From: Polynucleobacter sp. 78F-HAINBA
GTDB lineage: Bacteria > Pseudomonadota > Gammaproteobacteria > Burkholderiales > Burkholderiaceae
Length of the DNA stretch: 64,000 nt
Direction of reading: 5' to 3'
Assembly (NCBI RefSeq): GCF_018882325.1
Contig: NZ_JACVOQ010000001.1
Span: 310,001-374,000, forward strand
Below are positions 37,567-59,948 of this stretch, one piece after another. The notes under the pieces were generated by a model that was not told where the DNA came from, did not search any database, and saw only the letters and a list, made by a program, of their open reading frames with translations. The first letter of the stretch is position 1, and each line of letters begins with the position of its first letter. The translations under genes and the position numbers were made by a program.

Positions 37567-38628
37567 TTAGTTGTACTGCTTAGAAAGCCAGTCACGGTAA
37601 GAGCCACTGACTACACCCTCAATCCAAACGGGGTTATCTAAATACCATTGCACCGTTTTACGAATGCCCGTGTCAAAGGTCTCTGCCGGCCGCCAGCCAA
37701 GCTCACGCTCTATCTTGCCAGCATCAATTGCATAACGACGATCATGCCCAGGACGATCTTTAACGTAAGTAATTTGATCTATGTATGACTTGCCATCGAT
37801 ACGAGGTTTTAGCTCATCCAAAATTATGCAGATAGTTTTAACTACCTCAATATTAGCCTTTTCATTCCAGCCACCAATGTTGTAAGTCTCGCCCAACTTG
37901 CCTTTGGCCAATACTTCACGAATCGCAGAGCAGTGATCGCCAACATAGAGCCAATCACGAATCTGCTGACCATCACCATAAATTGGCAATGGTTTTCCAT
38001 TAAGTGCATTGAGAATCACCAATGGAATTAATTTCTCCGGGAAGTGATATGGGCCGTAGTTATTCGAGCAATTGGTCGTCACTACTGGGAAGCCATAAGT
38101 ATGAAACCACGCACGGACCAAATGGTCAGAAGCAGCCTTAGAGGCGGAGTATGGGCTATTAGGCTCATAGGAATTGGTTTCTGTAAATGCGGGATCAGTA
38201 GCAGATAAGGAGCCATAAACTTCATCAGTGGACACATGATGAAAGCGGAAGGCATTCTTGGAGGATGCAGATAAACCACTCCAATACTCACGAGCACATT
38301 CAAGGAGATTGAAAGTGCCAACAATATTGGTTGTCACAAATTCAGCAGGCCCGTGAATTGAGCGATCAACATGGCTCTCGGCAGCAAAATTAATGATAGC
38401 GCGGGGTTGGTACTCTTTTAATAACCTAGTAACCAACACTTGATCGCCAATATCACCATGGACAAAGATATGACGCAAATCATCTTTCAAAGATGCAAGG
38501 GTAGCTAAATTACCCGCATAGGTCAGCTTATCTAGATTAATAATACCCTCATTGCCTGGCACTTTTAGCCAATCTAAGACGAAATTGCCCCCAATAAAGC
38601 CAGCGCCACCGGTTACTAAAATCATCAT
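37567..38628 (-). CDS. rfbB: dTDP-glucose 4,6-dehydratase
   Basis: Second enzyme of the rhamnose pathway. The 353-residue SDR protein has [19 protein letters not shown] at the N-terminus, [29 protein letters not shown] and the catalytic pair in [15 protein letters not shown]. The C-terminal substrate region has [13 protein letters not shown] and [17 protein letters not shown]. First gene of the rhamnose operon; two adjacent ATG codons (38628, 38625) could start it. Confidence 0.97.
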
Positions 38629-38748
38629 AATTTTCTCTAAGGATGAGATTTTATATATTAATAGATTTTACCCTCGACATCTTCACAATAAGGGTCTAAG
38701 TCAAATTCTGAGCAATAATCATGGGCATATTGTGTGGATAAGCAGAAA

Positions 38749-40140
38749 ATGAACTTAAATTTACAACGATTTCAAAAAATTACAGCGCTTCTTCTGCTTC
38801 TTATCCTTATTCCACTTTGGAATACCCCACACACGATTGCCGGAAGATATTTCTGCGAAGGATTTCTATTAATTCTAGTTTTTACATATAAATCTGATTG
38901 GAAGACTTTTTTCCTAGCAAACAAAGCTCTAGCCTTTTTCTTCGTTTATTTATTTATACAGCTCATATTTTTTTCTAAGAATTATGAGATCGCTTTCAAT
39001 AACTTTCGCGCTGAGTGGATGCACTTTATTCTGTTTTCAATCATTGGCGCAGGCGTAGGGCAACTTCTAGAGAAATGGGGCTCCACCAAGATCCTTCTCT
39101 TTCTTGGCATTGCGTTTTCTATACCCCTTTACACTCATCTGATACTGTCATCTATTAAAGGCGTCCAGATTAACTCAATACCTTGGGGTTATTGGGGGAT
39201 AAATGAGATACATGGGGACTTAGGATACACAGCTCTGCAAGCCTCGATATTTTTATTTACCTATTTGCTATATCAAACGAAATCTAGATTTTTGAAGTTG
39301 GTAACAATCATTCTTCTTGCCGCATGTATATTTTCACCCCTGTTGGCATCTAGCCGAGGGGGAACAGGATTCGTCCTCATTGGAATTCTCTTTATATCCC
39401 TCGCCTACTTCTTTATAGGAGAGGGATATAAAGTCAGCCTGAGAAATAAGCTTATAGGGGCTATATCAGTTTTTATTCTGATTGCAGCCACCTACCAAAT
39501 TGGACTAATAAATGATCCAAATAGATGGGGCGGGATTATCTCCAGAGTTTCCCTTGGATTTGAGGGTGATCCAAACAAACTCTATTGCGAAGGTATAGGC
39601 ACCCTAGAATCAACCCTCAAATCCAAAGGAGTGGCAATTACTCCCGAAATTCAAAAAGGCTTAAGTAGCATTGTGGATGGAGATGGTGCTCGGATAATGG
39701 CTGCGCGATCTGGCGCTTCTCTAACAATTCAAAACCCAATGGGTATAGACCAATCAAGACAGTCTTATCAACAGGCTATTACAAAATCATGTAATATTGC
39801 CCCCGCTATATACATTTCACATACACATAATGCCTGGATAGATACCGCGCTCGCAATTGGAATCCCAGGTTCTGCATTACTTTTATTGGTACTCTTAACT
39901 TATCTGAGTAAAGGATGGGGCGCACTCATATCGAACATGCCATCCGTCACTCCATTCGGCATGGCGCTCTTCGCCAGCTCCTTTTTATGGATCTTAAGGG
40001 GCCTTCTTGATTCGACACAGAGAGATCAGATGTTAGAAATGCAGGCTTTTGTGTTGGCTCTTTTACTGGGAATAATTATTGCCAAAGGTCTCAAATACAA
40101 GGAGAATAAAAGAACTAATGTTTATAAAACAATAGCTTAA
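38749..40140 (+). CDS. O-antigen ligase family membrane protein
   Basis: About 463 residues with ten or more membrane helices and a large periplasmic loop (residues about 260-370), the plan of WaaL and Wzy-like proteins. The Wzy_C/WaaL hallmark region is LLASSRGGTGFVLIGILF before the loop, and the loop ends in SHTHNAWIDTALAIG with the conserved His. WaaL joins O-antigen to lipid A-core, while Wzy polymerises it; position among core and rhamnose genes favours WaaL. I chose ATG at 38749; GTG at 38734 is possible. Its 3' end overlaps the convergent gene by 26 bp. The coding region is AT-rich. Confidence 0.85.
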   Translation: MNLNLQRFQKITALLLLLILIPLWNTPHTIAGRYFCEGFLLILVFTYKSDWKTFFLANKALAFFFVYLFIQLIFFSKNYEIAFNNFRAEWMHFILFSIIGAGVGQLLEKWGSTKILLFLGIAFSIPLYTHLILSSIKGVQINSIPWGYWGINEIHGDLGYTALQASIFLFTYLLYQTKSRFLKLVTIILLAACIFSPLLASSRGGTGFVLIGILFISLAYFFIGEGYKVSLRNKLIGAISVFILIAATYQIGLINDPNRWGGIISRVSLGFEGDPNKLYCEGIGTLESTLKSKGVAITPEIQKGLSSIVDGDGARIMAARSGASLTIQNPMGIDQSRQSYQQAITKSCNIAPAIYISHTHNAWIDTALAIGIPGSALLLLVLLTYLSKGWGALISNMPSVTPFGMALFASSFLWILRGLLDSTQRDQMLEMQAFVLALLLGIIIAKGLKYKENKRTNVYKTIA

Positions 40141-40870
40141 ATTCTGAATTTTGAGAAACAAGCCAAGCCCGAAATCTCTCTTTCAGACGCCTAACCCTAG
40201 AGTCTTTGTAATACTTTCCAGACCCGCCTCCCATCCCACAAACGACTGGAGGAATTTCAAAGAGAAAACGGCTCAACTTTTCTCGTGTCACCATCTCAAG
40301 AAACCTTTCCTCTATACCAATGCCTGATGGCCCTCCAATACCAATGTGGGCTTTTGATAAATGATTGACATAGAAGTCTTTATCAATCATATAAAACCTT
40401 GTATCGACATACTCCAGTTGACTTTTTTTAAAAGAAAAAACATTTGAAAAAAAAGCTTGGCATACGAAATGTCCATTCCAAGATTGAATACATTCTAAAA
40501 AATTATCAACCCAAAGTTTAGCCGTGCATTTTACAAACCACTGCGATTGTAGCAGAGTTTTTGAATGCTCTAAGGCGTAACGGATAATTTCCCCCTCTCC
40601 ATACCCCTTTCCATGCAAACGAATCAGATCTGGGTCATTACTAAAAGAGATGCATTCAATGTTCGCGCCTGGAAAACGCTCCAACACCAAGAGAGAAAAA
40701 TCAAAGCCAGACCCGTCACACAACACATATTTATTTTGTGGAGAGATATCCAACCACTTTTGAATTGACTCTAAAGTGTGGAATACCCTTAATTTCTCAT
40801 CCTTCAGCTGAACGGATTGATCCATTGCAGTAACACTTGAAGTTAGAAGGATTGGTGGCAATTTATCCAT
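40115..40870 (-). CDS. Unrecognised protein in the LPS cluster, possible glycosyltransferase
   Basis: I do not recognise a family for these about 251 residues. A readable start is ATG at 40870 (MDKLPPILLTSSV), five bases after the stop of the upstream gene. The frame is open further upstream but then overlaps it. The protein has FHTLESIQKWLDIS and YVLCDGSGFDFSLLVLERFP, whose CDGSGFDF resembles the start of a sugar-phosphate or glycan-modifying enzyme. There are later segments IGIGGPSGIGIEERFLEMV and VVCGMGGGSGKYY. The YVLCDGS...IECISF layout recalls sugar transferases of capsule loci. The role in O-antigen synthesis is inferred from neighbours only. Confidence 0.7.
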   Translation of the reverse strand: MDKLPPILLTSSVTAMDQSVQLKDEKLRVFHTLESIQKWLDISPQNKYVLCDGSGFDFSLLVLERFPGANIECISFSNDPDLIRLHGKGYGEGEIIRYALEHSKTLLQSQWFVKCTAKLWVDNFLECIQSWNGHFVCQAFFSNVFSFKKSQLEYVDTRFYMIDKDFYVNHLSKAHIGIGGPSGIGIEERFLEMVTREKLSRFLFEIPPVVCGMGGGSGKYYKDSRVRRLKERFRAWLVSQNSEFKLLFYKH

Positions 40871-40874
40871 AAAT

Positions 40875-41774
40875 CTATAGGTAACTCTGTAGAAATCTAC
40901 CAAAACGCTTGATTCTTCGCAATAGGCGAGAAGGAAGTGATTTGTTTGGGGCGCCAAGATGCCCATCCATATCCCACGCAGACTGATATATCACTCCGAA
41001 ATAGTGCTTCGCCAATTTAGCTTCGGTTTCACCTAAACGCTTCATCAAGAAATACTGCCAGTCATAGTGATATGTTCTAAATAGGGGTTCAATTGCAATC
41101 AGGGGAATGGCGCAATATTTCATGAGCGCCTCACCATAGATTAATGACTCTGGATGCTCTGGTGTAATGAGATCCCAAATACTAATACTTTTGGGCTGTA
41201 AGTATTCTTGATCTAAAGATTGCCAAACTTTTGCCGACCAGTTAAATGGAGCTGGTGCGCAATAAAAATGAGGGCCAACTCGATTAAACAATTTCTGAAC
41301 ACGCTCAGCCTCTACTCTGAGGTCATGCTCCACTTTGTGGTGACCACGATTAGTGGCAAGCTGAAATAGCTCTTTATTCTGATGCAAAACTGTATAAGGT
41401 ACATTAGCATCTGTCACAAAATCAGATTGCTTGAAGTCGCGAACAAATTTGCTATCTGAATCCAAGCAAAGGTAGTTTTCAGCTAAACCCAAACGCCAAA
41501 ATTCTGCTTTGACAATTTGCTGAGAAAGCCCTCCAGGCATTTCACGATATTTAACTAAATCAGCACGGGGATTAGTGGCAACGATTTCTTCATCTGCCAC
41601 CCAATCGTAATCAACTTTACCGATTACTTCTTCCAATAATGCCTTCTCGGAAGCTGGTGTAGAGATATAAAAAGGAATGTGATCAACGTTGTGTCGCTTG
41701 ACCGACTCTAAGAGCCTCTTCAGGCGCAAGAAATCCCGTGAGTAGGATTTGCAATAAAGAACAAAGTTGTTCAA
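40875..41774 (-). CDS. DUF6492 family protein, likely glycosyltransferase
   Basis: A 299-residue protein that I place in DUF6492, a glycosyltransferase-like group. FVLYCKSYSRDFLRLKRLLE begins it, and YLCLDSDSKFVRDF carries an Asp-x-Asp-like metal motif after PGGLSQQIVKAEFWRL. HFYCAPAPFNWSAKVW and IEPLFRTYHYDWQYFLMKR follow. The start is TTG at 41774, supported by AGGA seven bases upstream; no ATG fits. It lies between a GT4-like gene and an unrecognised gene, all on the minus strand, and presumably acts in surface polysaccharide synthesis. Confidence 0.75.
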   Translation of the reverse strand: MNNFVLYCKSYSRDFLRLKRLLESVKRHNVDHIPFYISTPASEKALLEEVIGKVDYDWVADEEIVATNPRADLVKYREMPGGLSQQIVKAEFWRLGLAENYLCLDSDSKFVRDFKQSDFVTDANVPYTVLHQNKELFQLATNRGHHKVEHDLRVEAERVQKLFNRVGPHFYCAPAPFNWSAKVWQSLDQEYLQPKSISIWDLITPEHPESLIYGEALMKYCAIPLIAIEPLFRTYHYDWQYFLMKRLGETEAKLAKHYFGVIYQSAWDMDGHLGAPNKSLPSRLLRRIKRFGRFLQSYL

Positions 41775-58358: not shown

Positions 58359-59162
58359 TTACTTGCGCAGGCCAAGAACATCTTGCATGTCATACAAGCC
58401 TGAGTTCTGCGCTTGTAAGAAGCGTGCAGCGCGCAATGAACCCTGCGCGTAAGACTGGCGGCTAGAAGATTTATGGCTGATCTCAATACGCTCGCCCTCG
58501 CCTGCAAATAGGACGGTATGATCGCCCACAATATCTCCACCCCGAATAGTGGCAAAACCAATTGAGCCAACTTTGCGCTCGCCCGTGTGACCTTCGCGGG
58601 CATATACAGCCACATCGTCTAATTTCTCACCAAGCGCATCTGCAATCACTTCACCCATTCTGAGTGCAGTGCCAGAAGGCGCATCTACTTTATGACGATG
58701 ATGAGCTTCAATGATTTCAATGTCATAACCTTCGTTCAACATCTTGGCAGCAATCTCTAGCAACTTAAATGTCGCGTTGACACCCACACTCATATTGGGA
58801 GCAAATACGATAGCTAAATTGGCGGAAGCTTTCTTAAGGCTTTCAATTTGCTCTGGACTTAGACCAGTAGTGCCGATAATCATTTTGCTACCCGTCTTTT
58901 GCGCTACGGCTAAGTGAGCCATCGTGCCTTCTGGGCGAGTGAAATCAATTAAAAACTCAGCGTCAGTTAAAGCCTTTGTAATATCAGACGTAATTGCTAC
59001 ACCAGTTTTTTTTCCTAAAAACGCACCAGCATCTTCACCAAGCAAAGGGCATGACTCATGCTCCAAGGCGCCAACCAACTCAGCATCTGAGCAATTGAGT
59101 ACAGCCTCGATCAACATTTTTCCCATACGGCCAGTGGCACCAGCAATTGCGATTCTCATCAT
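58359..59162 (-). CDS. dapB: 4-hydroxy-tetrahydrodipicolinate reductase DapB
   Basis: Reduces hydroxy-tetrahydrodipicolinate in lysine and diaminopimelate synthesis. The 267-residue enzyme has the nucleotide-binding start [40 protein letters not shown], and the catalytic and substrate motif [40 protein letters not shown] is the C-terminal signature. It follows bamE on the same strand; the 150-bp gap between them contains a possible lost 3' end of bamE. Confidence 0.97.
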
Positions 59163-59228: not shown

Positions 59229-59312
59229 TTATTTAACTTCACTAGCCTGCGGAACGTTGAGAGCACCAGGACCTAACTGTTGAGGCGCTGGCTGGGCATC
59301 TGGCGATTTTTT
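59229..59312 (-). pseudogene. In-frame coding-like extension beyond the bamE stop
   Basis: Directly after the bamE TAA (59315-59313) the same frame continues for 27 codons, beginning KKSPDAQPAP and ending VPQASEVK, and then meets TAA at 59231-59229. The composition (Pro, Gln, Ala) matches the end of BamE itself. The stop lies at the join of a T5A8 run; changing the first A of that run to T (TAA to TTA) would restore a continuous frame. It may be the former C-terminus of BamE, cut off by a recent nonsense change. Confidence 0.55.
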
Positions 59313-59948
59313 TTAAAAACTAAAGAAGTCCCAAAAAGAACTGCTAGCAGGAGCCGCAGGCACAGTCGCCCCAGCCGGCAAATTGTTAGTTGGGCTAGGA
59401 ACTAGTAACTCGGGTTGCTGCAAAGGCGGTGTTACTGGAGGCTTGTTCGACCCCGTCATCACATCCCAGAATGATCTCTTCGATTTTGCGTAGCCATCGA
59501 TTTCCTCGACCAACTCTACATCTGTTGGTAATGCATCACCTTGGAACTTGACTAACTTATCACCCTCGAAAAATACGGTGACGCGACGCTCTTTACTCAT
59601 TGGCTGGCCAGCGCGCTTAAATTCAAAAACATAGTCCCAGCGATTGGCATGGAAATAACTAGCGAGCAAAGGTGTGCCCAGAATTTGGCGAACTTGCTCG
59701 CGACTCTGACCAACTTGTAGCTTGGCGTACTGTTCGCTCGAAATAAAGTTGCCCTGCACCACATCCGGCACATAAGGTCTAAAGACTTTGTTCATCCAGG
59801 CGCGTTGCGTGTCATCAACAGCGCTGGTACAGCCAGTAGCAAGCAATACCGAACCAAGTGCAGCAATAATTAACCCCGTCCGAGCGAGGTCGAAAACCCT
59901 AAAAATGGAGTTCAATAGACGGGTAAAAAGTTGAAGGCAATTTTGCAT
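59313..59948 (-). CDS. bamE: Outer-membrane protein assembly factor BamE
   Basis: Lipoprotein of the BAM complex, which inserts outer-membrane proteins. The 211 residues begin MQNCLQLFTRLLNSIFRVFD, followed by a signal helix and lipobox LLATGCTSA (Cys40). The SmpA/OmlA domain has PDVVQGNFISSEQYAKLQVG, QSREQVRQILGTPLLASYFH and WDYVFEFKRAGQP. A Pro/Gln-rich tail ends FWDFFSF. The N-terminus is longer than usual, and any longer start would run into fur. It is divergent from fur, as in other betaproteobacteria. The stop may be premature (see the extension at 59229-59312). Confidence 0.92.
   Translation of the reverse strand: MQNCLQLFTRLLNSIFRVFDLARTGLIIAALGSVLLATGCTSAVDDTQRAWMNKVFRPYVPDVVQGNFISSEQYAKLQVGQSREQVRQILGTPLLASYFHANRWDYVFEFKRAGQPMSKERRVTVFFEGDKLVKFQGDALPTDVELVEEIDGYAKSKRSFWDVMTGSNKPPVTPPLQQPELLVPSPTNNLPAGATVPAAPASSSFWDFFSF

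What the first reader, a model, noticed from the sequence alone, without database searches (positions are those of the whole stretch)
59229..59320. bamE stop codon followed in frame by 27 coding-like codons at a T5A8 run
After FWDFFSF and TAA the same frame reads KKSPDAQPAP... to VPQASEVK and a second TAA. The Pro/Gln-rich composition continues that of the BamE tail, and there is no other gene in this gap. The stop straddles a homopolymer junction (TTTTTAAAAAAAA), where one T/A boundary change would remove it. This could be a strain-specific nonsense change, a sequencing error, or a slippage-controlled C-terminal extension.
Basis: partly seen in the sequence, partly recalled or inferred. Interest (0 to 1): 0.6.

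Follow-up and report, generated by a model that had tools for sequence, protein, structure and literature searches.

The report
Late nonsense mutation trimming bamE
In this freshwater Polynucleobacter genome one changed base has turned a conserved serine codon near the end of the bamE gene into a stop, so the protein should lose a short, probably floppy tail; this is an ordinary late truncation (or, less likely, a base-call error), not a new control mechanism.

Summary
bamE (minus strand) stops at TAA 59315-59313, and the same frame stays open for 27 more codons to a TAA at 59231-59229. Openness alone means little: 29 of 178 ORFs here have their next in-frame stop at least 27 codons on. Comparison decides it. 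Of 150 genus genomes examined, 103 carry the second FWD module at this place; 102 read through it with a serine codon (TCN), and only the window has a stop. The nearest relative has TCA, one base from TAA. The T5A8 run is a by-product of that substitution, not evidence of slippage: a one-base slip either way misses the native tail frame, none of those 102 has the stop, and no suppressor anticodon was found among 36 tRNA genes. In relatives the tail is under purifying selection (dN/dS 0.13 against 0.03 in the core), yet several other lineages lack it, so its absence is tolerated. Verdict: most likely a recent, lineage-specific nonsense change that removes the last 28 residues of BamE. An assembly base error is the main rival, since no reads or second strain could be checked. 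Ordinary; low interest.

The parts
59316..59948 (-). bamE as it stands: 211-aa BamE lipoprotein (signal peptide with LLATGC lipobox, BamE domain at residues 66-136, Pro-rich tail with two FWD modules)
   Evidence: Pfam PF04355, E 2.7e-24, 85.2 bits against cut-off 23.2; nearest relative 99% identical in protein; lipobox read from the sequence
59313..59315 (-). premature TAA stop in place of a serine codon
   Evidence: TCA in nearest relative G044; TCA 78, TCT 12, TCG 10, TCC 2 in the 102 other genomes with the module
59232..59312 (-). 27 orphaned codons, the former BamE C-terminus KKSPDAQPAPQQLGPGALNVPQASEVK
   Evidence: matching endings in relatives; extension dN/dS 0.127 among 25 related genes; one codon differs from the nearest relative
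59229..59231 (-). ancestral bamE stop codon (TAA)
   Evidence: no difference from G044 in this codon
59307..59319 (-). T5A8 run created by the C-to-A substitution; relatives have a C inside it (T5-C-A4 in G044)
   Evidence: sequence; codon table of relatives
58359..59162 (-). next gene downstream, dapB (dihydrodipicolinate reductase, name recalled, not searched)
   Evidence: 267-aa ORF; of the 66 bases between the old bamE stop and its start 1 differs from G044

Best explanation
A recent single C-to-A substitution changed a conserved serine codon (TCA) of bamE into TAA in this Polynucleobacter lineage. Translation should now end after FWDFFSF, so the last 28 residues of a 239-residue protein are not made. 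The BamE domain (66-136) is intact, so the protein most likely still works in the outer-membrane assembly complex. The lost piece is a Pro/Gln-rich, probably disordered tail that several other Polynucleobacter lineages lack. Shown: the base difference, the conservation of the serine and of the tail in relatives, and that the stop is unique among the genomes examined. Inferred: that the base is real in the organism, and that the effect on fitness is small.
For: 102 of 103 genomes that carry the module read through with a TCN serine codon; the window is the only stop (150 of the 177 matching genomes examined). The nearest relative has TCA, with 9 of 633 bases differing before the stop and 1 of 27 codons after it. 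On a bamE core tree the window pairs with that relative (98, starred) inside a 21-row clade (86) whose other 20 rows have the full tail. The tail is coding in relatives: dN/dS 0.127 over 300 pairs of 25 genes. Absence of the tail is tolerated elsewhere: the tail-less group needs 12 changes on the tree, at least 4 forced by starred branches. Bases look sound: of 156 G044 ORFs matched at 80% identity or more, 4 have a stop in this genome, 3 of them ahead of the apparent true start (by inspection), which leaves bamE; the frameshift test flagged none.
Against: Serine is invariant in the 102 other genomes with the module and the tail is under purifying selection, so its loss is not expected to be wholly neutral. 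No reads, second strain or peptide data were available. The AlphaFold model is poor overall (mean pLDDT 53.2), so disorder of the tail is weakly supported. Counts of changes on the tree do not tell loss from gain.
Confidence: 0.78

Rival explanations
1. Assembly or base-call error: the organism has a serine codon here and a normal 239-residue BamE; the draft assembly carries one wrong base beside an A-run.
For: Draft assembly of 27 contigs; the change lies next to a homopolymer; the orphaned codons are undecayed (1 codon differs from the nearest relative, and that codon looks derived in the relative); the other genomes with the module all have serine (102 of 102).
Against: The assembly looks clean: bamE is the only interior stop in this genome among 156 matched ORFs and the frameshift test flagged none; completeness 99.99, contamination 0.06. 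A substitution is not the typical homopolymer error, which is an indel (recalled).
Confidence: 0.17
2. Regulated or leaky C-terminal extension: ribosomes or RNA polymerase slip, or the stop is suppressed, so that some BamE keeps the long tail.
For: The downstream codons are intact, and the stop sits in a U5A8 run of a kind that can favour slippage (recalled).
Against: A single slip in either direction gives an end unrelated to the native tail; two compensating slips or true stop readthrough would be needed. No anticodon tta, cta or tca among 36 tRNA genes found by the Rfam tRNA model. TAA is the main stop codon of the long ORFs in this stretch (115 of 184). The stop is in 0 of 102 other genomes with the module. 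Ordinary low-level readthrough cannot be excluded from sequence.
Confidence: 0.03
3. Selected truncation: loss of the tail is favoured in this lineage.
For: Tail-less bamE genes are scattered over the genus tree.
Against: The tail-less relatives lack the second module altogether and are different alleles; nothing in the data separates selection from drift.
Confidence: 0.02

Closest known systems
BamE (Pfam PF04355), outer-membrane assembly lipoprotein
   Same: BamE domain, lipobox, and 63 to 99% protein identity to the genus hits listed
   Different: Ends 28 residues before the C-terminus of its closest relatives
Late nonsense (C-terminal truncation) allele, a common kind of variation between related bacteria (recalled)
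   Same: Single-base change from sense to stop near the 3' end, with the downstream codons still conserved
   Different: Nothing of note
Programmed slippage or stop readthrough (recalled)
   Same: Stop next to U and A runs, intact codons downstream
   Different: Stop not conserved; one-base slips do not lead into the native frame; no suppressor anticodon found

Membership tests
BamE family | BamE domain | tested here: met
   PF04355, E 2.7e-24, residues 66-136
BamE family | lipoprotein signal with lipobox cysteine | tested here: met
   LLATGC read from the sequence; C40 invariant in the 39 aligned sequences; no signal-peptide program was run
BamE family | works in the BAM complex | not testable with these tools
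   needs experiment
Late nonsense allele | close relatives read through at the same codon | tested here: met
   102 of 102 other genomes with the module, out of 150 examined
Late nonsense allele | one base step from the relatives' codon | tested here: met
   TCA in the nearest relative, TAA in the window
Late nonsense allele | downstream codons are coding in relatives | tested here: met
   dN/dS 0.127 over 300 pairs of 25 genes
Late nonsense allele | present in the organism's DNA (reads or second strain) | not testable with these tools
   no reads held; one genome per species in the collection
Programmed slippage or readthrough | stop and slippery site conserved among relatives | tested here: not met
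   stop in 0 of 102 other genomes with the module
Programmed slippage or readthrough | a one-base slip leads into the functional frame | tested here: not met
   both slipped frames give unrelated ends
Stop suppression | suppressor tRNA | tested here: not met
   no tta, cta or tca anticodon among 36 tRNA genes found in the genome; a divergent tRNA below the search threshold would be missed

The most novel reading that the evidence does not exclude
The stop is real and leaky, so the cell makes a mixture of short and long BamE, with the conserved tail added to a minority of molecules.
Probability: 0.03. Interest if true: 0.4.

Novelty: new member of a known kind. Interest (0 to 1): 0.12.

Why it matters
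For annotation: the bamE end in this genome is not the ancestral one, and the gene should be noted as truncated at its 3' end. The side result is more useful: the BamE tail that 102 of the 150 examined Polynucleobacter genomes carry in full is under purifying selection, yet other lineages of the genus lack it, which offers a natural comparison for what BamE tails do. Nothing here points to a new mechanism.

Tried and rejected
Slippage: both one-base slips past the stop were translated; neither gives the native tail. Suppressor tRNA: no such anticodon among 36 tRNA genes. Chance open frame: 27 open codons is not rare (29 of 178), so the argument rests on conservation. Another copy of the allele: an exact pattern over the stop found 0 matches in viral contigs (a poor place to look for a bacterial gene, and records near the window's own genome may be left out there). 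Structure: the model is low in confidence (mean pLDDT 53.2) and serves only as weak support for a disordered tail; no fold search was made. Literature: the listings (1 of 1 papers shown; 5 of 5; 15 of 61; 15 of 23; 10 of 13; 10 of 25) showed nothing on BamE tails in Polynucleobacter. Of PMC3359395 I saw passages, of PMC6529637 the abstract and outline, and of all other papers only the search listing.

First attempts that were replaced: one search was translated one base out of frame; the scripts missed part of the loci through narrow motif filters (one search missed 23 of 150) and were superseded.

Rows left out. One search matched 177 of 186 genomes but listed 150; the other 27 were not examined. 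In one search two of 150 were cut, L252 by the contig end and L280 by the end of my stretch. In the tree, three of 138 distinct genes were dropped: L048 and L078 because my motif search missed their first module (both have full tails), and L075 because it is cut. The dN/dS set holds only the 25 distinct full-tail genes of 720 bases with at least 84% core identity, the window not included. In the reverse direction, 2 of 155 matched ORFs of this genome have a stop in the G044 partner (codon 20 of 222; codon 47 of a 102-aa ORF at 80% identity); I did not look into these two.

Full report
What is there. bamE lies on the minus strand at 59948-59313 (stop included), with the next gene (dapB, name recalled) at 59162-58359. 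Pfam identifies the BamE domain at residues 66-136 with E 2.7e-24. The gene ends SFWDFFSF-TAA, and the same frame goes on through KKSPDAQPAPQQLGPGALNVPQASEVK to a second TAA at 59231-59229. A run of 27 open codons is not rare by itself: 29 of 178 ORFs of at least 150 aa in 220 kb of this contig, bamE among them, have their next in-frame stop at least that far away; 6 of the 184 such ORFs were left out because no second stop was seen within 600 bases or the stretch ended.

Which organism. The best named records are Polynucleobacter species such as P. hallstattensis (94% in the best segment) and P. bastaniensis (93%). The window lies in a 2.05-Mb draft of 27 contigs, completeness 99.99 and contamination 0.06. 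The species was not identified.

Relatives read through. A search of 186 genomes of the genus found bamE in 177 and listed 150. I read those 150, the window's own included (loci). Of the 150, 103 have the second FWD module at this place. In 102 the next codon is serine (TCA 78, TCT 12, TCG 10, TCC 2) and the frame runs 22 to 38 codons from that serine to the stop. Only the window has a stop there. Of the other 47, 45 lack the second module and 2 are cut. In 120 genomes drawn from the family, the tail peptide matched 10, all of this genus, which is 1 of 25 genera; one listed genome of the genus had no match.

How the stop arose. The nearest relative, G044 (L002), has TTT TCA AAA CAA where the window has TTT TAA AAA AAA. 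Before the stop 9 of 633 bases differ, 7 of them without changing the residue. After it 1 of 27 codons differs, and in the next 66 bases 1 differs. That one codon, CAA, looks derived in G044, since the next closest relatives have AAA or AAG. So the window lineage needs one C-to-A change, and the T5A8 run is its by-product. On a tree of the bamE core (135 rows, quick method) the window pairs with L002 (98, starred), inside a 21-row clade (86) whose other 20 rows keep the full tail.

Is the tail real coding sequence? Yes, in relatives. In 25 related genes (300 pairs) dN/dS is 0.127 for the extension, 0.041 for the tail before it, 0.028 for the core and 0.262 for the signal region. The tail is constrained, though less than the core. 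Lineages without it are scattered on the tree (12 changes for the tail-less group, at least 4 forced by starred branches). Such counts do not tell gain from loss; repeated loss is my inference, because the tails of the others are alike. A structure model gave the last 31 residues pLDDT under 50, but the whole model is weak (mean 53.2).

Error or real? I compared 220 kb of the window's contig with 400 kb of G044. Of 396 mechanical G044 ORFs of at least 80 aa, 156 matched at 80% identity or more. Four had a stop in this genome; three of these lie ahead of the apparent true start by inspection, which leaves bamE as the only interior one. The script's test for frameshifts flagged none. In the other direction 2 of 155 matched ORFs have a stop in G044, which I did not follow up. 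This argues for a clean assembly and a real change. It does not prove it: reads and a second strain were not available.

Slippage or readthrough. A one-base slip at UUU-UAA gives SFLKKIARCPASAS... or SFKKNRQMPSQRLNS, neither of which is the native tail. No suppressor-type anticodon is present among the 36 tRNA genes found. TAA is the commonest stop of the long ORFs (115 of 184). The stop is in 0 of 102 other genomes with the module. A programmed extension is not supported; ordinary low-level readthrough cannot be judged from sequence.

Conclusion. This is most likely a recent, lineage-specific nonsense change that removes 28 residues from the end of BamE (0.78). The main rival is an assembly error at one base (0.17). 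The kind of event is ordinary and the interest is low.

Noticed in passing
bamE tails of L120, L121, L217, L218, L221, L224, L243, L250: These Polynucleobacter relatives lack the second FWD module and the LGPG end, and finish in a short end with terminal K (for example NNLPAVTK). Tail-less genes are scattered on the bamE tree, which suggests repeated loss.
   Followed up: partly
L097 (bamE match from 2501) and L280: A MAG bamE with a long tail carrying four modules of the form [ST][WL]W[EQ][KR]LTGQNKP, resembling the first FWD module RSFWDVMTGSNKPP. BamE tails here may grow by module repetition.
   Followed up: no
G000 contig 11, 170001-390000, against G044 (window is 310001-374000): Identity to the nearest relative jumps between blocks of over 800 bases from 78% to 99.7%, as expected from recombination; window about 38626-41653 has no match of that length.
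   Followed up: no
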